Below are positions 822 through 11,122 of a DNA stretch of 64,000 nucleotides, piece after piece. Source of the DNA: Aureibaculum flavum (lineage in GTDB: Bacteria > Bacteroidota > Bacteroidia > Flavobacteriales > Flavobacteriaceae); the NCBI RefSeq assembly GCF_016406085.1, contig NZ_JAEHFJ010000004.1:62001-126000 (forward strand), read 5' to 3'. The position numbers and the translations under genes were made by a program. Each line of letters opens with the position of its first letter. Within the stretch, counting starts at the first letter, position 1. Below the pieces are notes generated by a model. It saw only the letters and a program-made list of their open reading frames with translations, made no database searches and had not been told where the DNA came from.

Positions 822-908
822 ATCATTAGCTTTTTCAATCTGTCTTCTTATCGCTTTCTGTCCTATTTTACCATAATTATCTGAGGCCGTCAAAAAAAGG
901 ATTGGCTT
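783..908 (-). pseudogene. 41-codon orphan C-terminal fragment
   Basis: On the minus strand the frame is open from just after a TAA at 909-911 to a TAA at 783-785. It contains no ATG. The translation (for example QIEKANDLGFYQRLGFRF near its end) reads like the C-terminal end of a real protein, not like random AT-rich sequence. It lies between the MATE gene and the restriction operon and overlaps the secreted-protein stub on the other strand. I do not recognise the family. It supports the idea that the left edge of the island is a scar made of gene pieces. Confidence 0.25.
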
Positions 909-950
909 TTATTTAACAAAATATTACAGATAATCAACCAAAGTCACTTT

Positions 951-1670
951 CTACCTAGTAAGATTTCTAGCTGAATTCTTCATTTCAACACCCCAAGGAA
1001 AAATTCTAGTTGCAAAATATGCGATAGGCATGGCTGCTCCCAATTGAGTTGTCCTTGATTCATCTTTTCTAATTACTCTAGAAAACCACCTATCTCCTCT
1101 ATTTGATTCTTCACAAATTAATAAACCAGCAAAAGTAAATGCTAAAACTATAGCAGGTATTTCTCCTCTTGATGTATTCAAAGGTTGATATGATGAATTA
1201 TTATTTATAGGAAAAAAATTATTTACTACTTTGATTAGCTCATCAAAAATAAAATCAATTGTAATTGGTGTTATTCCTTTGTGAGTAGTTTTACCAGCTA
1301 GAGAAGAAACATCAGGAACATTACCTAAAGTATTAAATGATAAACTTGAAAAGAAAGGTAACAACCCAAAATTTCGAGATGATGACCAATCCATTAGTGC
1401 GTCAATTATATCTTGATGTGAAGGAACACCAATTAAATTTCCATGATTTCTTAATTCTAAAAGTAAATCATGTTCATGTTCAATATGATCATCACATAAG
1501 CCAGAAGTTCTTCTTATGTTAATTTGATTTTCACAACCATTTACTTTACAAGTTTTATCATTTGACAAAAAATTTAATTTATTTGGATTAGGCTTATTTC
1601 TTCCTGTAGTTCCATTATCTAGTATTCTAATTTCCCAACCCGAAATTGATTTATTTACAGTATTTATCAT
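951..1670 (-). CDS. Hypothetical zinc-knuckle protein of the Sau3AI-like R-M operon
   Basis: This is the third gene of the restriction-modification operon. It begins inside the last codons of the endonuclease gene (ATGA overlap at 1667-1670), which implies translational coupling. The 239-residue product has a likely zinc site, C41-x4-C46-x12-C59-x2-H62, followed by a His/Glu-rich HIEHEHD. A hydrophobic helix lies near residues 170-185 and the tail is basic. I do not recognise a named family. The tight coupling suggests a dedicated accessory role such as a specificity, regulatory or DNA-binding helper. Base composition is as AT-rich as the rest of the island. Confidence 0.75.
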   Translation of the reverse strand: MINTVNKSISGWEIRILDNGTTGRNKPNPNKLNFLSNDKTCKVNGCENQINIRRTSGLCDDHIEHEHDLLLELRNHGNLIGVPSHQDIIDALMDWSSSRNFGLLPFFSSLSFNTLGNVPDVSSLAGKTTHKGITPITIDFIFDELIKVVNNFFPINNNSSYQPLNTSRGEIPAIVLAFTFAGLLICEESNRGDRWFSRVIRKDESRTTQLGAAMPIAYFATRIFPWGVEMKNSARNLTR

Positions 1671-3100
1671 TTACTTATTTGTTTTAAAATATATCTACTA
1701 TTAAGCCAATAACACTTCTTTTTTTTAAACTTTCCTAACGGAGTTTCCATTAAATCTTTAGAATTAGCTCCTTTTGGTCTAACGTGACAAATTTTATGAT
1801 CTTTTAATTTCCAAAAATTTTCATAGTCATCATTTTGAATGGAAGATTTAGTATGATTCCAAAATTTCTCTGCAATTTCTAAATCTTTAGAAGGCATAGT
1901 CCAAAACATTACTTTTTTGAGTCTTGCAATATTATTTTTATCTTTTTGAAAAATAACAAAGAAAAAACGTTTTGTAAGTATAGAATACCAATAAGATTCA
2001 GCCCACTCTTCATTAATTATTTCTTTAAACTTTATCTGAGCAAAAGACATACTTTCTTTTAAAGTTCCTGATGATTGAAGTTTAATTGTCTTTAATTCAA
2101 TTTCTGCCTTTTCGAATTCTTCAATTTTACCTTTATTAATACCTAAAATGGACTTTGCAAAAACATAATTTTTATTCTTAGCTCTTAAATTAATTTTTAG
2201 TTTGAATTCATCTATTAATTCTTGCTCTGAATAACCATAATATTTTGAGAATTTTTCAATAATGAGATCTTCAAAAGTTTGCCCTTTTTTGTAGTCTGAA
2301 ATATTCTTAATTATCGCTTCATGGTCATCAAATAGACCGCCATAAGAAGATATTGGTTCATTTATAACATCACTATCATCTTCTAAAAACTGTAGATATT
2401 CATCATCAAATTCCGTTAAACTGTAATCTCCTTTTAAACTTTTGGAAATAATAAAATTTAGATATTTGGATTTTAAAGAAAAAGCTCTTTGTTGTGCCTT
2501 TTTATTTGAAAACGGTTGAGTTCTTTTAGATTTTAATGCAGTAGACCCTTTAGTACAAGCACCTAGATATAATGTGTCGCCTTCAGAAATTTCATGAGCT
2601 TTTCCTGCTTTTATTTTAGCGACAATTGTATGCCAATCGTCTTTAATAATTTTTAAGTCTGTCAAAGGGAAACGCCAAAGTCTAGCAATTTTAAATATGT
2701 AGTCAATATCTATTTTATCATTTTCATATAAGTAAAAAAGTAAAAGTAAAAGACTATTTTTTTTCCAAAAACTACTTTCTTTAAAAGTATATTTATACTC
2801 CTCTTCAAAGTCTATTATATTGAAAACTAAGCGTTCTTTAGAAACAAGACCTTTTGAGTTTTTTTTTATTGGAGTTGTTTTTAATTCTACCCTAGCTTCG
2901 GGAAAATCAGGTTCAGGATTTGAGTTTGGTTGATATCCAAAATATAAGGATTCAACCAGTTGACCTAGTTTTCCCTTACCTGAATATAAATTTTTTAAAC
3001 TATTTCCGTATAGATTTCTTAATGATTTATTTAATATCCCTTTGGCGTAATATTCAATTGAAATCGGATCAGTTTTATCGTATGGTAAATCTTTATGCAA
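1667..3100 (-). CDS. Sau3AI/MutH-fold type II restriction endonuclease (predicted GATC specificity)
   Basis: The 477-residue protein has the two-domain plan of Sau3AI. The N-terminal MutH-like domain shows GKGKLGQLVE (Glu50) and the catalytic D-x6-E-x-K core D65...E72-L-K74. A second MutH-like half (about residues 270-440) carries E328...E335-L-K337, in which Glu replaces the first Asp. In characterised Sau3AI the second half is an allosteric effector domain that binds a second GATC site. The gene overlaps the methyltransferase by 8 bp and the next gene by 4 bp, so all three are probably one transcript with the protective methylase first. Recognition of 5'-GATC is inferred from family; it is not visible directly. 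Confidence 0.9.
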   Translation of the reverse strand: MHKDLPYDKTDPISIEYYAKGILNKSLRNLYGNSLKNLYSGKGKLGQLVESLYFGYQPNSNPEPDFPEARVELKTTPIKKNSKGLVSKERLVFNIIDFEEEYKYTFKESSFWKKNSLLLLLFYLYENDKIDIDYIFKIARLWRFPLTDLKIIKDDWHTIVAKIKAGKAHEISEGDTLYLGACTKGSTALKSKRTQPFSNKKAQQRAFSLKSKYLNFIISKSLKGDYSLTEFDDEYLQFLEDDSDVINEPISSYGGLFDDHEAIIKNISDYKKGQTFEDLIIEKFSKYYGYSEQELIDEFKLKINLRAKNKNYVFAKSILGINKGKIEEFEKAEIELKTIKLQSSGTLKESMSFAQIKFKEIINEEWAESYWYSILTKRFFFVIFQKDKNNIARLKKVMFWTMPSKDLEIAEKFWNHTKSSIQNDDYENFWKLKDHKICHVRPKGANSKDLMETPLGKFKKKKCYWLNSRYILKQISK

Positions 3101-4523: not shown

Positions 4524-5369
4524 TCAATCTCTAGCTTTTTTTAATAGACCTTTTAGTAATGAAATTATTTCCTTACTCTTTGCATCACCACTCAAAAGCC
4601 CCTTCAAACTACTGTGTTTTCTAATTAATTCACCATTATCTAAACCAGAAAATTCAAATTGTCCAGTTAATGCTATTAACGATTTATTAAAATCTGAATT
4701 AGTTTTTCTTCCATCTATAATAGGTGGTTTTCCATTTGTTCGTTCAAAGGTAAATCCTTTTAAATATTTACTAGCATTTTCTATTTTTTCTTTTTGATTA
4801 CTATTTCTATTCAAATTAGCAATCAAAATATCTTCTAGATTACCTTTCCCTTCATTATTTGCAATAATATAACTTCCAAAGCATTTAAATTTGTTTTCAT
4901 CTATAATGATATTATGCTTTGCATTCTCAATGTTTTCAATCTTATCTTTATATTGTTCAATCATTTGTTCAATTCTTTTTTCGATACCCACATCATCTGC
5001 ATCAAATATCATACATAAAGATAAATCAATTTTCTTCTTTTCATCAATCTCTCCAAATTCTATTGCTGTTCGATAATTAAAGATAACTTCTTTTGCTTTT
5101 TCTATATTCCTTATTCCATCAATTGCATACAATATTGCGAATTGATGATGTTTATTTGGTTGTTTGAAAATTACTGGTAAATTTGGACCTTTTCTAAGTC
5201 TGTTATTGTCATAATCAAATTTCCCTATTTGATTGATAAATAAATCCTTTAAAGGTTGATCAAAATCACTAATATTTTTTTTATACTCTGAAAAGTTTAA
5301 TAATTCTAATAAGAGCGATAAATACGCCATATCATGTTTTCCTTCACAAATAATTAAAATACCATTCAT
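4524..5369 (-). CDS. TOPRIM-domain nuclease-like protein (DUF3226/DUF4435-like), partner of the ParB-ATPase
   Basis: The 281-residue protein carries the TOPRIM signature in order: N-terminal ILIICEGKHD with invariant Glu9, a D-x-D loop in IFDADD (Asp123, Asp125), and GNLED (176-180), the downstream motif seen in DUF3226/DUF4435 proteins. TOPRIM folds use these acids to bind Mg2+ for nucleic-acid cleavage. The gene starts 4 nt after the stop of the ATPase gene, so the two are co-translated. An ATPase followed by a stand-alone TOPRIM protein is the layout of PARIS (AriA/AriB), while Gabija GajA and OLD carry both parts in one chain. I infer an effector nuclease unleashed by the ATPase. The exact Pfam family is uncertain. 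Confidence 0.82.
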   Translation of the reverse strand: MNGILIICEGKHDMAYLSLLLELLNFSEYKKNISDFDQPLKDLFINQIGKFDYDNNRLRKGPNLPVIFKQPNKHHQFAILYAIDGIRNIEKAKEVIFNYRTAIEFGEIDEKKKIDLSLCMIFDADDVGIEKRIEQMIEQYKDKIENIENAKHNIIIDENKFKCFGSYIIANNEGKGNLEDILIANLNRNSNQKEKIENASKYLKGFTFERTNGKPPIIDGRKTNSDFNKSLIALTGQFEFSGLDNGELIRKHSSLKGLLSGDAKSKEIISLLKGLLKKARD

Positions 5370-5373
5370 TTCT

Positions 5374-7551
5374 CTATATATTTCTTAAATCAGCACCTAA
5401 AACAGAATGAAATTTTTCATAATCTTTACCTGGGAAATAATTAATTTTTTGATTCATAACATCTTCTGTATTTATTGAATAAAATGATAATGACTCGTTC
5501 TTATATTCATTTTCAATAAATGCATTAATACATTCACCACTATGAGAAGAAATGAATACTTGTACATTAAACTCTTCTGAAAGATTTTGAATGAATTCAG
5601 TAAATTTAATTAATAAACTATAATGAATAGCATTATCCAACTCATCAATTAGAAGTATACCATTTTTAGCTGCAGCAAAATTAAGTGCAATATAAAATAT
5701 TCTTTGTACACCTTCTCCAAAAGTACTTAAATCAACAGATTCTTCGAAATTTTTATGATCAACTAAAAATCGAGGAATGTCCAAATCATCAACATAATTA
5801 ATATCATTAATATTATTATCAATATTAATCTTAATAAAATCTATAATTTTATTTATTGATTTATCTTCAACACTTTTAGAGTATAATAATGACAGGTTTT
5901 CCTTGTTTTGTTGACTAAAAGGACTTGATAAATATGAATCACATATAATCTGTATTTTTTTAAAAAATGATTTGCTTTTCCCTTGATCTTGTAGCAAATA
6001 TTTTGTTGTTAATTCTTGATCATTAAATTTAGATTCTATGAGTAATGTTTTCAAATAATTAGATTTGTCTATTTCATCATTTTCATCTTCGTCTTCAGTA
6101 AATATTTCAACACTAGTATTATTACTTTCAAAAATTCCAGACAATGAGATTTCTTCAGTTAATTGTTTCTCAAACCAAGTTGCTGATAACGAATTTAATT
6201 TACCTCTTCTCTTATATAAATCTAGAAGTGAATAAATATCATTTTGTCTTGTTAGCAAATAAATCGCTTCGAGTACAGATGATTTTCCAGAATTATTTTT
6301 TCCAGCAAAAATGTTTACTCTATTTAGATGTTCTAGTTTAATGTTTTGTAGTTTTTTATATTTAAATATTTCTATCAAACTATACTGGTTGTTTCTATGC
6401 GAATAATATTTATGTCGTTCGTACGGAGAATTAATGGAAATAGAAGCTCCTTTTTTATTTAATAGTATAGAATCTATTTTATCTTTTATTACAGTTAAGC
6501 TTTCAACATGACTTTCTTCCGAGTATTGAATAAATCTAGAAGTTATAGAGAGTTGTTGATCAATAACATCTATTGAACCATCCAACTTATTTTTACTAAC
6601 CACATCACTTAAAATAAGTCCTTGGGATACTGACCGATATTCTTCCATTGCCTTAACCGCTTTATCATCTTGAATAAAATCAGCTAAATCTCGTATTTCC
6701 GAACTTTTCGAAATAATAGGGTCTACTATTTCGTAATCGTTACTATTGTCATCATCATCGTCATCATAATTATAATCCTCTTGAACTGCAGAAATCCATG
6801 TAAAGAATCGATCCAATCGATAATTTGAAATTGGTGAATCATTTATTGTATCCCATTCTAACCATTCTCTAATATTTGGCTTATTTACTGTTTCTTCAAA
6901 AATAGCATACATAGGTGTAGAAAATTGGTCACCGTAATCACTATTCTTATATAAATCTATTAATTTAAGTGCTCTAAGTGATTTTCTTAGTTTTAATTTG
7001 CCAATTCCTAAAGAATCAACAATATCATCTTCGGATAAATTTTCATTTTCTCTTAAATCCTTTAATAATTGTGCCTGATTTAATGGTGGCCATTTTTTAT
7101 TGCCATTTATATGTTTTAAACCCATAATAATACTGTGACTTACAGTATCACCTGAATCATATACAATAACAGGTACGTTATCAAATAATTCTTGTTTTAA
7201 ATTACCAATATCTTGAGAATCGATATATTGCTCTTTTAAGTATTTGAGAGTTGCAATTCTCCTATTACCTTCTAAAACACGATAGGACTCATCATTAATT
7301 TTTTCAACTTGAACTTGATCAACATGAAGGTATCCATTTTTTTTAAAACTTTTAACTAAATCTCTAATTCCGTCAATACCTTTTCCTTGAATAAAATTTC
7401 TTGTTCTCTTTTGTATTCTTTCTGAAAGAATTTCTACATTATTAATTCTTACATAATTTGAATTATCAATGAATCTATAATTATTAGGATCTAAAAACAA
7501 TTTTTCTAATGGTACAGATATTGGTGTACCCTTATTTATTTGATTTACCAT
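5374..7551 (-). CDS. ParB-like domain fused to an AAA15/OLD-type ATPase
   Basis: This 725-residue protein has two parts. Residues about 10-245 form a ParB/sulfiredoxin-type domain (VPLEKLFLDPNNYRF, EGNRR at 94-98 in the ParB box) followed by the helical region usual after it. An acidic linker (six Asp in a row, around residue 265) leads to an ABC/OLD-type ATPase: Walker A GKNNSGKSS near residue 416, Walker B ILLIDELDNA near 631, then a conserved SSHSGE. The ATPase resembles AAA15 proteins of PARIS and OLD systems. It is followed at once by the TOPRIM gene. A role as the sensor of an anti-phage system is inferred; the ParB part may bind DNA or a nucleotide, or act on DNA. Upstream lies a long AT-rich divergent control region. 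Confidence 0.85.
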   Translation of the reverse strand: MVNQINKGTPISVPLEKLFLDPNNYRFIDNSNYVRINNVEILSERIQKRTRNFIQGKGIDGIRDLVKSFKKNGYLHVDQVQVEKINDESYRVLEGNRRIATLKYLKEQYIDSQDIGNLKQELFDNVPVIVYDSGDTVSHSIIMGLKHINGNKKWPPLNQAQLLKDLRENENLSEDDIVDSLGIGKLKLRKSLRALKLIDLYKNSDYGDQFSTPMYAIFEETVNKPNIREWLEWDTINDSPISNYRLDRFFTWISAVQEDYNYDDDDDDNSNDYEIVDPIISKSSEIRDLADFIQDDKAVKAMEEYRSVSQGLILSDVVSKNKLDGSIDVIDQQLSITSRFIQYSEESHVESLTVIKDKIDSILLNKKGASISINSPYERHKYYSHRNNQYSLIEIFKYKKLQNIKLEHLNRVNIFAGKNNSGKSSVLEAIYLLTRQNDIYSLLDLYKRRGKLNSLSATWFEKQLTEEISLSGIFESNNTSVEIFTEDEDENDEIDKSNYLKTLLIESKFNDQELTTKYLLQDQGKSKSFFKKIQIICDSYLSSPFSQQNKENLSLLYSKSVEDKSINKIIDFIKINIDNNINDINYVDDLDIPRFLVDHKNFEESVDLSTFGEGVQRIFYIALNFAAAKNGILLIDELDNAIHYSLLIKFTEFIQNLSEEFNVQVFISSHSGECINAFIENEYKNESLSFYSINTEDVMNQKINYFPGKDYEKFHSVLGADLRNI

Positions 7552-7944: not shown

Positions 7945-8646
7945 ATGAGAGATTCATATCAAAAATTTTTTGAACATTTTAAAATTGACTTTTCAGATAT
8001 AATTGAATTTGGTATTGAAATTGATACAATTTACCCTGATCCTAAAAAAGTTAAAAATGAGTGGATTGAATTAATTAATTCGATTGAAAACAATGAGGAT
8101 GTTTATATAAGAGGATACGGTAGAGATGCACATGGTACTGCAATGTATCAAGAATTATATAAGATTTTATTAAATAATGAAAATATAAAAAAAGATGCAA
8201 GTAACAACGATAAACCTACTCGTTTATTACAAAATATTACGAATTACTCAAAGACAATTAAAAAAGATTCTTTAAACAAAGAAAGAATAAATAATTATCA
8301 AGTATCTCATATTTTTGGCAGAACAAAAAAACCTTTTTTGTTTACTGCTCCATGGAATATTGTATGGAAGTCTAAACTTTTAGATCCATTAACAGGACAC
8401 GAATCTAGAGGCGAAAACACCAATAAATATAAAAAAGCATTTTTAGAAAAGTCAAGCAAAATGTATTCTGAATATATATATGAATACAATCAATTCGTCA
8501 AAAAATATTTTCTTAATGATAATTTAGAAAAAGCATTTATTCAAATGAGTATAAATAATTCGAATATGAATGAAAAAACATTTAATAAGTTTAAAATCGA
8601 CGCAATCAATGAACTAAAACCAATTGAGTATTCTAAAATGAAATAA
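7945..8646 (+). CDS. HNH-like putative endonuclease, divergent from the ParB-ATPase
   Basis: The 233-residue protein is unknown, but its centre contains a conserved-looking block: VSHIFGRTKKPFLFTAPWNIV, then DPLTGHES. His122, Asn138 and His152 are spaced like an H...N...H metal-dependent nuclease core, without zinc cysteines. The N-terminal 110 residues and the Lys/Asn-rich C-terminal helices have no motif I can name. The gene is transcribed away from the ParB-ATPase. It could be a third component of that system, a stand-alone restriction enzyme, or an unrelated cargo gene. The start is ATG at 7945; an ATG at 7938 is out of frame. The nuclease call is an inference from spacing. Confidence 0.6.
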   Translation: MRDSYQKFFEHFKIDFSDIIEFGIEIDTIYPDPKKVKNEWIELINSIENNEDVYIRGYGRDAHGTAMYQELYKILLNNENIKKDASNNDKPTRLLQNITNYSKTIKKDSLNKERINNYQVSHIFGRTKKPFLFTAPWNIVWKSKLLDPLTGHESRGENTNKYKKAFLEKSSKMYSEYIYEYNQFVKKYFLNDNLEKAFIQMSINNSNMNEKTFNKFKIDAINELKPIEYSKMK

Positions 8647-8951
8647 CATTAAGTTAACAAATATTCCATTCCACACATTCCACTCCACTCCTATCATTAT
8701 CTTGACTTCTCTCGATACAGGCTAGCAAAAAGAGTGTTTATTCATTACTTTCTTATTGTTTTTTAGAGGAAATCATGAACCTTTAATGAGTTTGGCTTTC
8801 GCCTAACTTCATTCTTCGGTTTCATTACCTTTCTAAAATCAACTTTTGAGAAGAAAACTTTTAAGAAAATATATAGCTATTTACCACTCAGTAAGCTAGC
8901 TTACTGAGTGCTTGAGATTTAAAGGTCTAGGACATCAATTTGAGTCAGATT
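8647..8951. other. Non-coding right border of the defence island
   Basis: No gene is visible in these 305 bp. It holds a short run of imperfect ATTCCA/ACTCC units at about 8662-8692 and a perfect palindrome at 8885-8910. Base composition rises towards that of the flanking genome. An 11-nt motif here (8792-8802) is the inverse of one at the left border (792-802), too short to count as an attachment site on its own. Confidence 0.4.
8885..8910. repeat. Perfect 26-nt palindrome
   Basis: The arms CACTCAGTAAGCT (8885-8897) and AGCTTACTGAGTG (8898-8910) are exact reverse complements with no spacer. There is no T-run on either side, so it is not a standard intrinsic terminator, although it sits between the 3' ends of the HNH-like gene and the DUF6624-like gene. 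It could be a protein-binding site, a recombination site or a cruciform-forming mRNA end. Confidence 0.7.
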
Positions 8952-9650
8952 TTATTTATCCATACCACTTTGTTGCATTTTTTTTACGTCTGCTAAGGTG
9001 TACGGATAATAATCAATTCCAAGCCGTTTTGCATTCTCCTCTACAGTACTTGTAAATCCGGCTTTTCTTCTCAAATGATTCACTTTATTTAGGTTTTTTA
9101 TGGGCCAAATAATGTTTTTAAACTCCTTTTCTCCTGTTGTTTTATTGAAAACGTTAAAACCTTTTCCTTGGGTTCCGTAAATCTGTTCTTTTTGCTTGTA
9201 AACCAATGAACGGTCAAGCATCATGGCATAAAGTTTAAAATCAATTTCTTTTTTATTGGCGGCCTTTTTTATTAAGGGTAAATAGGTATCAATTTTTGTT
9301 GAATGCTGAATTACATAAAATGCGGCTTCATTTGTTTCTGGACCCACCATAGTTAAACCTGGATAACCAAATTGTTTTATAATTTGTTCAATTCGAATTA
9401 AATTTAATGAATCAGAAATAGGAATTTGTTTAATGATATAAGGAATCAATTTTTTCTTGTCAATATTAAAGGCTGTTGCAAGAGAATCAGATTTAGTTTG
9501 CAACAATTCAGATGAAATTAATGTTCTTAAGTTTTGGTCTTCAAATAAAATACTGTCCAATTCCTTTTTTAATTTCAAATTTATTTTAGACTGACCCAAT
9601 GAAGGAAAACTAACTAATAAAATTCCAATTCCAATTATTAAATTTTTCAT
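8952..9650 (-). CDS. Secreted DUF6624-like protein
   Basis: A 232-residue protein with a cleavable signal peptide (MKNLIIGIGILLVSFPSLGQ). The centre has FGYPGLTMVGPETNEAAFYVIQHS and later QIYGTQG and an EENAKRLG-type tail, the pattern I associate with the DUF6624 family of secreted or periplasmic Bacteroidota proteins. The function is unknown. It is a single gene on the minus strand with no obvious operon partner; the 290 bp upstream are gene-free. Confidence 0.75.
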   Translation of the reverse strand: MKNLIIGIGILLVSFPSLGQSKINLKLKKELDSILFEDQNLRTLISSELLQTKSDSLATAFNIDKKKLIPYIIKQIPISDSLNLIRIEQIIKQFGYPGLTMVGPETNEAAFYVIQHSTKIDTYLPLIKKAANKKEIDFKLYAMMLDRSLVYKQKEQIYGTQGKGFNVFNKTTGEKEFKNIIWPIKNLNKVNHLRRKAGFTSTVEENAKRLGIDYYPYTLADVKKMQQSGMDK

Positions 9651-9943
9651 AGTAGCGTTCTTTTATGGCTAGCAACGTTGGCAGATAGTTGCCATTTCTA
9701 CAAATATAAGAAATATAGGATAGTTGGCATTGTTGGTTTTGCCAGTGGCTGAAGCAATATTCAAGAAAGTTGATGCGGTTGGAAAATAATGAACTTTATA
9801 CTTCAGTTAAATTTTTCACCAAAAACAAATTACGGTTCTCTAGTTAGAATTATAATTAGTACTTCATTAGATCCTATCATTCCCAGCCGCATCAACTGTC
9901 TCAAAAAGAAAATCATCCACAGGATGATTTACTTTTATGAAAT
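9651..9943. other. Gene-free stretch with an inverted repeat
   Basis: No supported gene is present. Ten-base arms GTTGATGCGG (9769-9778) and CCGCATCAAC (9887-9896) form an inverted repeat 108 bp apart. Near 9672-9755 short TTGGC/GCCA words recur (GTTGGCAGATAGTTGCC and similar). It may be the edge of an old insertion, but no transposase remains. Confidence 0.35.
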
Positions 9944-11122
9944 CTATTTTCTTATAACTTCTATGCTACGTCTAAAATCAAATTCTCCATCTGTAATAGA
10001 AGCTTCAAAACGATACATTCCTTTTTTAGGTAATTCTAATGTTGGTGTTAATGTATTTGGATTATTATTTTCAAAAATGGCATCAGAATGTCCTTGTACC
10101 TGCTTCCAGCTAATTTCAGCATCAATTCCATCAGAATCATTATCCGTAATTACAGTTATTATACTTAGTGATTTTCCATCTTTAGATAATTTTTGAGAAA
10201 TTTCTATAATTGGAGGCGTATTTATTTCTTTTGGTTTTTTTGAAGTTTTAACAGGAATACGTTTTGAATCTGTAATTCCAGCAGCAAACAACATTAATCT
10301 TTGTGTAAACTCTCTATTATCTGAATGACTTAATCTAGTTCCTGCACCTGCATTCCAAAATAAATTACGATCAAATAGACCAATAACTCTTCCCTTACCT
10401 ATTTTTTAAATTGCTAGCGTAGCATCCGTTTTAGCATTAAACACTCCATCAACTTTATTTACTTCAAGTCTTCCTCCTAAACCACCATCCTGAGCTTTAG
10501 CTAACATTTTAGCAGGTTTAGAGATTCGAATAAAACTAACTCCTTCACCTCTAAAACGAATTCCTCCATTTTTATTGAAATTATTCAAAAAATGATCTTC
10601 AGTATAATTCTGAACCAAATAATTACCTGCACCATTATCCGTTAAAAAATGCATACCAAATTGTTCGGTTATACTATTATCTGAATTTCTACCAGTTGGG
10701 TTATCAAGTCCAACAAGTTTATATTCTCCGCCAAAACCGCTGTCAGACCAAGCAACTAAACCACCACCTTTCTTAACCCATACACTTACTGCCTTAGCTT
10801 CTTCTTTAGAAAATATACGTTGATTAGAGGCTAAAATTAAAACATCAACTGTTTTTAAAGTTTTTGAATTCAATATTAATTCCTGATCATAAATTTCCTT
10901 TACATCTAAATTAACTTCTTCTAATGCTTCTAAAAATTGACTCATACCTAGAATATCGGTATCATTCAATCTCATTTGATGAAAAGGTTCCTGTTCTCCT
11001 GAAGGAATTTTTCCATCTGCTGAAACATCTCCATAGACATACAATACAGATTGGGCATTTAAACAGAATGGAAAACAAACTATAATAAATAAATTAATAA
11101 TTTTTTTATAAAAGGGACTCAT
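9944..11122 (-). pseudogene. Secreted amidotransferase-fold/PKD-like protein broken by one in-frame stop
   Basis: Two ORFs (10406-11122 and 9944-10294) lie in exactly the same frame. The 37 codons between them read as good protein (KIGKGRVIGLFDRNLFW...) after a single TAA at 10406-10408. Restored, the protein would be 392 residues. It would have a signal peptide (...CLNAQ), a domain resembling class I amidotransferase/ThuA-type folds (VDVLILASNQRIF, WVKKGGGLVAWSDSGFGG), and a C-terminal Ig/PKD-like domain (PPIIEI...DNDSDGIDAEISW...). Frame is kept on both sides, so a nonsense substitution (for example CAA, AAA or GAA to TAA) is the simplest cause. A truncated 238-residue secreted product may still be made. 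Confidence 0.8.

What the first reader, a model, noticed from the sequence alone, without database searches (positions are those of the whole stretch)
4524..7551. ParB-ATPase fusion plus separate TOPRIM protein: candidate undescribed anti-phage system
Seen: a ParB/sulfiredoxin-type domain (EGNRR, 94-98) is fused to an AAA15/OLD-type ATPase (Walker A near 416, Walker B near 631). A TOPRIM protein (Glu9, Asp123, Asp125) starts 4 nt after its stop. Known: PARIS pairs an AAA15 ATPase with a DUF4435 TOPRIM nuclease, and Gabija and OLD carry both in one chain. The ParB addition is not part of those systems as I know them. Inferred: the ATPase plus ParB part senses or grips DNA or a phage inhibitor and releases the TOPRIM nuclease. 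It sits beside a restriction-modification system.
Basis: partly seen in the sequence, partly recalled or inferred. Interest (0 to 1): 0.85.

Follow-up and report, generated by a model that had tools for sequence, protein, structure and literature searches.

The report
ParB-ATPase plus TOPRIM phage-defence pair
Two neighbouring genes, an ATPase carrying a ParB-type DNA-binding front half and a nuclease-like partner, almost always travel together across many bacterial phyla and sit in a known phage-defence slot in E. coli, so they are most likely an anti-phage system that has been catalogued but not explained.

Summary
A 725-aa protein joins a ParB/Spo0J-type domain to an OLD/Rad50-type ATPase; a 281-aa TOPRIM protein starts 4 nt after its stop. 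It is not wholly undescribed: PADLOC-DB lists the pair as candidate PDC-M38 (2e-276, 1e-195); no held paper has that name. Of 58 fused homologues with downstream DNA, 56 have the TOPRIM gene directly 3' and 2 have remnants. Catalytic and pocket residues are near-invariant; the genes co-diverge (Mantel r 0.88). The pair is in 34 of 5,426 E. coli genomes; in the three examined it follows psu and delta of a P4-like satellite, a slot holding retron St85 in another strain. One homologue lies between BREX pglZ and brxL. Three free-standing relatives of the ParB half precede Mrr-type nuclease genes, so it looks portable. Against: no excess of defence genes near the pair was shown. Defence is likely; trigger and substrate are unknown. 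It works like AbiL/PARIS but fails the PARIS nuclease test.

The parts
5374..7551 (-). ParB-ATPase fusion gene, 725 aa (PDC-M38A)
   Evidence: model mb990bd8be1c6, pLDDT 88, pTM 0.55
6952..7530 (-). ParB/Spo0J-type N-terminal domain plus helix-turn-helix, residues about 8-200
   Evidence: hhalign against chromosomal ParB E 2.5e-6 over residues 34-198; ParB/Spo0J proteins in the viral fold search; the start at residue 8 is judged by eye
7258..7272 (-). EGNRR motif, residues 94-98
   Evidence: invariant in 49 of 49 aligned fused proteins
5407..6390 (-). OLD/Rad50/SMC-type ABC ATPase head, residues about 388-715
6277..6306 (-). Walker A, AGKNNSGKSS, residues 416-425
   Evidence: Lys423 in 49 of 49, Gly422 in 47 of 49
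5710..5721 (-). ABC-signature-like FGEG, residues 611-614
   Evidence: Gly612 in 49 of 49, Glu613 in 46 of 49, Gly614 in 48 of 49
5641..5661 (-). Walker B, GILLIDE, residues 631-637
   Evidence: Asp636 and Glu637 in 49 of 49
4524..5369 (-). TOPRIM (DUF3226) gene, 281 aa (PDC-M38B); Glu9, Asp123, Asp125
5370..5373 (-). 4-nt gap between the two genes
   Evidence: in 38 relatives the spacing runs from a 56-nt overlap to a 59-nt gap, with mechanically chosen start codons
3093..4388 (-). 5-methylcytosine methyltransferase of the downstream restriction-modification system; same strand, 135 nt beyond the TOPRIM gene; context, not shown to belong to the pair
1667..3100 (-). Sau3AI-family restriction endonuclease; context
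   Evidence: NF040973 1.4e-134
951..1670 (-). 239-aa protein of no known family; context
   Evidence: no hits

Best explanation
The pair is a mobile anti-phage (or anti-mobile-element) system. The ATPase chain is the sensor and gate, the TOPRIM protein the nuclease effector. The ParB-type front half, with its nucleotide-pocket motifs and helix-turn-helix, most likely contacts DNA or a DNA-bound invader signal; that changes the nucleotide state of the OLD/Rad50-type ATPase dimer and licenses or releases the TOPRIM nuclease, which then damages invader or host nucleic acid. Shown here: domain make-up, residue conservation, near-obligate linkage, co-divergence, spread over many phyla, a place in the P4 satellite slot, in a prophage and in BREX loci. 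Inferred: the defence function itself (no phage was tested), the trigger, dimerisation and gating, the nuclease activity and its substrate.
For: PADLOC match of both genes to PDC-M38. TOPRIM directly 3' in 56 of 58 assessable fused homologues, remnants in the other 2. Mantel r 0.88, 0 of 2000 permutations, 39 pairs. Invariant or near-invariant pocket, Walker and TOPRIM residues. Found in Bacteroidota, Campylobacterota, Pseudomonadota, Desulfobacterota, Bacillota, Verrucomicrobiota, Planctomycetota and Aminicenantes, with close kin in different phyla. E. coli: 34 of 5,426 genomes; in the three looked at, the cassette follows sid-psu-delta of a P4-like satellite; the same slot holds retron St85 and an ATPase plus S8 peptidase in two other strains. 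The psu-int slot is a published defence reservoir where PARIS was found (PMC9122126, passages). L026: prophage resembling phiES15, beside a replication-protein gene. L090: between PglZ and BrxL; L082: before PglZ-BrxL. Free-standing relatives of the ParB half precede Mrr-type nuclease-like genes in L087, L088 and L091/L004.
Against: No functional test exists here or was found. Near-versus-far scans show no excess of defence genes close to the pair (145 near genes; 108 far genes, which include BrxA, BrxB, 3 NsnA and 3 PD-T4-2_A matches), and several copies lie among housekeeping genes. Rare in the window's own lineage (1 of 296 genomes of the order). Two of 49 Walker A motifs have Ala for the glycine at 422. 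The front-half profile matches solved ParB-type proteins only below significance (E 0.16-0.37), level with an unrelated protein. The fold of the ParB half alone was not predicted. The TOPRIM model's likeness to OLD nucleases is modest.
Confidence: 0.62

Rival explanations
1. A PARIS-like guard: the ATPase chain recognises a phage protein, such as an anti-restriction DNA mimic, perhaps through the ParB half, and the TOPRIM protein cleaves host tRNA to stop growth. The adjacent restriction system is what is being guarded.
For: ATPase-TOPRIM split pair; P4 slot shared with PARIS; BREX slot; restriction-modification genes directly downstream in the window and L050. AriB is a TOPRIM tRNase (PMC12409363, passages).
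Against: TOPRIM has no DUF4435 or AriB hit; its best structural kin are PH0156 and, more weakly, OLD TOPRIM domains; restriction genes are few among the near genes scanned.
Confidence: 0.25
2. A toxin-antitoxin or addiction pair: the TOPRIM protein is a toxin held down by the ATPase protein, and the module mainly maintains itself on mobile elements.
For: Two-gene cassette on satellites and a prophage. AbiLii of F. nucleatum is toxic in E. coli (PMC3985639, passages). Damaged TOPRIM beside an intact ATPase in L060, L063, L068.
Against: In that paper AbiLi did not neutralise AbiLii; in PARIS deletion of either gene was non-toxic (PMC9122126, passages); L058 has a broken ATPase gene beside a full-length TOPRIM.
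Confidence: 0.08
3. A partition or housekeeping DNA-repair module (ParB plus SMC/Rad50-like ATPase).
For: ParB-like front half; Rad50/SMC-like head; several copies flanked by housekeeping genes.
Against: The genome has a canonical ParB elsewhere (G000:C1:224966); no ParA among the neighbours scanned; sporadic distribution and cargo-slot location in E. coli.
Confidence: 0.03

Closest known systems
PDC-M38 (PADLOC-DB candidate system)
   Same: Both genes match its models over their full length, ParB half included (PDLC04607, PDLC04616)
   Different: A catalogue entry only; it lumps this ParB-fused form with shorter ATPases (models of 362-383 aa). No held paper contains the name
AbiL (AbiLi plus AbiLii, Lactococcus)
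   Same: Two-gene abortive-infection module; AbiLi model matches the ATPase half (1.4e-35)
   Different: AbiLii model matches only weakly (0.0089); the AbiLi match covers residues 393-680 only, with no ParB part
PARIS (AriA plus AriB)
   Same: OLD-type ATPase and TOPRIM protein in two adjacent genes; P4 psu-int slot
   Different: TOPRIM is DUF3226-like, not DUF4435; ParB half added
OLD / Gabija GajA
   Same: ATPase head and TOPRIM fold
   Different: Two chains instead of one; no helicase among the neighbours scanned
PD-Lambda-5 subunit A (ParB-type protein)
   Same: Front half matches one of its models at residues 12-120 (7.8e-9); free-standing relatives match too, down to 1e-12 for L087 and 3e-24 for Wphi gp98
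   Different: No ATPase fusion in the free-standing relatives; how that system works was not read (one search found no paper with both terms)

Membership tests
PDC-M38 (PADLOC candidate) | PDC-M38A gene model match | tested here: met
   PDLC04607, 2.1e-276, residues 7-723 on 6-714 of 715
PDC-M38 (PADLOC candidate) | PDC-M38B gene adjacent | tested here: met
   PDLC04616, 1.2e-195, 1-281 of 281; 4 nt away
PARIS | AriA-like AAA15/21 ATPase | tested here: met
   AriA models 6e-23 and 3.3e-15, but not the best match
PARIS | AriB of the DUF4435 type | tested here: not met
   No DUF4435 in Pfam at E up to 1 and no AriB among the 12 PADLOC families matched
AbiL | AbiLi-type ATPase | tested here: met
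   PDLC02336 1.4e-35 over residues 393-680
AbiL | AbiLii-type partner | tested here: inconclusive
   PDLC02337 0.0089
Gabija / single-chain OLD | ATPase and TOPRIM in one chain (with GajB helicase for Gabija) | tested here: not met
   Separate genes; no helicase among the 9 window proteins scanned
ParB partition system | ParB N-domain and helix-turn-helix | tested here: met
   single-sequence models weak or silent
ParB partition system | ParA neighbour; being the genome's main ParB | tested here: not met
   No ParA among neighbours scanned; canonical ParB at G000:C1:224966
TOPRIM protein | Glu plus DxD motif and fold | tested here: met
TOPRIM protein | Nuclease activity | not testable with these tools
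   needs an experiment
Anti-phage defence system | Protects against phage | not testable with these tools
   needs an experiment

The most novel reading that the evidence does not exclude
The ParB half is a nucleotide-gated DNA clamp that serves as a portable address module: fused to an OLD ATPase it steers a TOPRIM nuclease, and as a free-standing protein it steers Mrr-type or other restriction-like nucleases. Together these would form a ParB-led class of defence in which partition-type DNA loading is reused to recognise invading DNA.
Probability: 0.27. Interest if true: 0.82.

Novelty: new variant of a known kind. Interest (0 to 1): 0.58.

Why it matters
ATPase-plus-TOPRIM defence is widespread (PARIS, Gabija, OLD, retron Eco8), yet what most of these sense is unknown. 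A ParB domain, whose DNA and nucleotide biochemistry is well studied (recalled), fused to the sensor makes that question directly testable. An E. coli version in a P4-like satellite can be tested in standard laboratory strains. A swap between TOPRIM and Mrr-type partners would show modular reuse of one sensing domain.

Tried and rejected
Considered and rejected: partition system (canonical ParB elsewhere); PARIS membership (no DUF4435/AriB); a chromosomal integron as carrier, suggested by short repeats around the site: gene order in one congener's stretch and in the own upstream stretch did not look like a cassette array, so it was dropped without a dedicated test. A Bacteroidota-type promoter pattern was uninformative (8 matches, 7.2 expected).

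Led nowhere: single-protein and two-sequence scans of viral contigs; a viral scan with three free-standing ParB proteins; TOPRIM in plasmids and in 199 genomes of the family (only the own copy at E up to 1e-4); fused chain in phages and plasmids, where only partial matches were found, with no place covering 80%; sequence search of solved structures for the single window proteins and the TOPRIM profile. For the long model the PDB fold searches listed ATPase-head matches in the rows shown; the ParB half was reached only through the viral library.

Rows dropped. Near-gene scan: 145 of 170 genes (size filter 120-900 aa, three duplicate loci, then three of the longest proteins for the residue limit); far-gene scan: 108 of 123. 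Those tallies show the 25 commonest families only (of 94 and 66), and the Pfam tally 25 of 142. A5 used 49 fused proteins and A6 41 TOPRIMs; broken or short copies and some near-duplicates were left out. Linkage count: set aside were five records without downstream DNA (L003 and L077, the same contig; L029; L066; L081), two cut off inside the front half by the contig end (L069, L089) and three free-standing ParB loci (L087, L088, L091). Several of the 58 are near-duplicates, among them L030/L085, L041/L042, L046/L047 and L034/L035. The TOPRIM profile was rebuilt in three rounds from hits in these same loci. TOPRIM is split, truncated or decayed in L031, L056, L060, L063, L068 and L080, perhaps L075; the ATPase gene is split in L058 and L080. 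The Mantel test does not correct for shared ancestry.

Full report
What is there. Both genes lie on the minus strand: a 725-aa ParB-ATPase chain (5374-7551) and a 281-aa TOPRIM protein (4524-5369), 4 nt apart; a 5mC methyltransferase, a Sau3AI-family endonuclease and an unknown 239-aa protein follow on the same strand.

Front half. NCBIfam's ParB model matches weakly (1.3e-4, below cut-off); Pfam gives no ParB hit for the window protein. Compared as profiles, 31 front halves (29 fused, 2 free-standing) and 9 chromosomal ParBs of related genomes align over 140 columns, through the N-domain and the helix-turn-helix (E 2.5e-6, probability 88.8%). PHROG 'ParB-like partition protein' phrog_1033 matches 28 of 31. 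The predicted model finds a series of phage ParB/Spo0J proteins in the viral library. A profile search of solved structures gives only sub-threshold hits: a ParB-like nuclease-domain protein (6ryk, 0.16), SbnI (5uje, 0.2), ParB (6t1f, 0.37) and, level with the last, the unrelated Avh240. Asp21, Pro22, Asn24, Arg26, EGNRR and Asn158 are invariant in 49 of 49 fused proteins. By eye, DPNNxR and EGNRRxA resemble the nucleotide-pocket motifs of ParB; that reading is recalled, not computed.

Linkage. Homologues were sought with the ATPase chain only: 11 loci in viral contigs and 55 in genome contigs. Of 58 fused loci with at least 200 nt of downstream DNA, window included, 56 carry the TOPRIM gene by profile search; L060 and L080 carry remnants with stop codons. 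Distances between the two protein families correlate (r 0.88; 0 of 2000 permutations; 39 pairs). In a tree of 39 fused proteins no well-supported group holds the window's; its nearest rows are Bacteroidota (L037, L038). The tree mixes phyla: Pseudomonadota needs 6 changes of label, no fewer than many shuffles (156 of 500 as low), while Bacillota and the enterobacterial viral-contig group are single clades, and Bacteroidota and Campylobacterota are clustered but not single. The pair is rare: 1 of 296 genomes of the order (E up to 1e-40); fused, 2 of 395 of the phylum.

Unfused relatives. Seventeen ATPase-only matches in the phylum (L005-L021) were checked within their short flanks: 13 have a neighbouring ORF with a TOPRIM-like EG-x-D start by motif, one more (L013) by profile. 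So the ParB-fused form looks like one branch of a larger AbiL/PDC-M38-like set.

Module swap. Three loci carry the front half as a free-standing protein (L087, L088, and L091, which is the same place as L004), each followed by a nuclease-like gene: Mrr_cat 1.1e-5 for L004, type IV restriction models 1.6e-5 and 1.4e-6 for L087 and L088 (ORFs). In L091 an AriAB-like OLD gene and then, by its motifs, a 5mC methylase come next. More distant ParB-type proteins stand beside uncharacterised genes in phage Wphi (gp98-gp96, with a cytosine methylase on the other strand) and in Vibrio campbellii; neither partner matched a PADLOC model, and their nuclease nature is only suggested by eye. A viral-contig scan for more free-standing forms found none, so the swap rests on three loci plus these two.

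Where it travels. E. coli: 34 of 5,426 complete genomes, all chromosomal. In the three looked at (NZ_CP084900, NZ_CP146585, NZ_CP091022) it follows sid, psu and delta of a P4-like satellite; in the first the integrase abuts tRNA-Leu. The psu-delta flank matches in 843 of 5,426 genomes, 614 of them over at least 80% of the query, 34 records at 99% or more; in two others looked at, the slot holds retron St85 or an ATPase plus S8 peptidase. That slot is a published reservoir of antiviral systems where PARIS was found (PMC9122126, passages); whether this pair is among the systems counted there I could not see. L031 carries the same P4 genes. L026 sits in a prophage resembling phiES15, beside a replication-protein gene. 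L090 lies between PglZ and BrxL, L082 before them; a 2026 survey describes TOPRIM-linked OLD ATPases as BREX extras (PMC12839542, passages). L050 is followed by a methylase and a restriction enzyme.

Results against a simple defence-island picture. Among 145 genes within 2.5 kb of the pair the PADLOC tally shows 2 PglZ, 2 BrxL, 2 AriA-like matches and single methylase, nuclease, HEC-01 and PtuB matches; among 108 genes beyond 6 kb it shows 3 NsnA, 3 PD-T4-2_A, BrxA, BrxB, a methylase and a nuclease. No near excess is shown. The commonest Pfam families near the pair are sugar-transferase, epimerase and other metabolic or envelope families, with BrxL and AAA among them (25 of 142 shown). In the window's genus a DNA search of 16 other genomes gave no match to the pair beyond a 63-nt stretch (only 17 candidate places per genome were scored). 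Two congeners carry a related Sau3AI-type system: in G831 (L124) the pair is not beside it, in G829 (L108) the contig is too short to tell. An Allomuricauda MAG holds the front half at 79% identity, cut off by the contig end (L069).

Literature. No paper in the held library contains 'PDC-M38', ParB with AAA_15 (searched as aaa15) and TOPRIM, or 'ParB domain' with anti-phage, CTP and nuclease. Two wider searches listed 6 and 10 papers; I read passages of 3 of the 6 (PMC12839542, PMC10853773, PMC10952713) and of 4 of the 10 (the first two of these, PMC10568477 and PMC12409363) and saw no description of this fusion. Passages of PMC12796447, PMC11514479, PMC3985639, PMC12111858 and PMC9122126 were also read. 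A survey of ABC ATPases cited there (gkaa726, number recalled) is not held, so prior mention in it cannot be excluded.

Verdict. A real, widespread, mobile two-gene module, probably anti-phage. Its class (OLD-type ATPase plus TOPRIM) is known and the pair is a catalogued candidate; the ParB sensor half and its apparent reuse with other nucleases are the new part.

Noticed in passing
L091 9860-15111: Free-standing ParB-type gene, Mrr-type nuclease-like gene, AriAB-like OLD gene and a 5mC methylase (by motif) in a row.
   Followed up: partly
window 866-924, 8640-8960, 9640-9960: Short dispersed repeats (matches of 35-144 nt, 76-94% identical) recurring within stretches of congeneric genomes and upstream in the own genome.
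   Followed up: partly
L117 9183-11073: A different ATPase plus 209-aa protein with a TOPRIM-like start in a congeneric genome, near such repeats.
   Followed up: no
window 7945-8646: 233-aa protein on the plus strand, upstream of the pair, without a convincing family match.
   Followed up: no
window 951-1670: 239-aa protein overlapping the end of the Sau3AI-type nuclease gene by 4 nt, no family match; perhaps a third part of the restriction system.
   Followed up: no
L043, L048, L049, L053, L073: ParB-ATPase fusions whose TOPRIM partner is a short form of 183-188 aa.
   Followed up: no
L060 10001-12537: Intact ParB-ATPase gene followed by a decayed TOPRIM gene, among housekeeping genes.
   Followed up: partly
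L124, L108: Congeneric contigs with a related Sau3AI-type methylase and nuclease; no ParB-ATPase beside it in L124, L108 too short to tell.
   Followed up: partly
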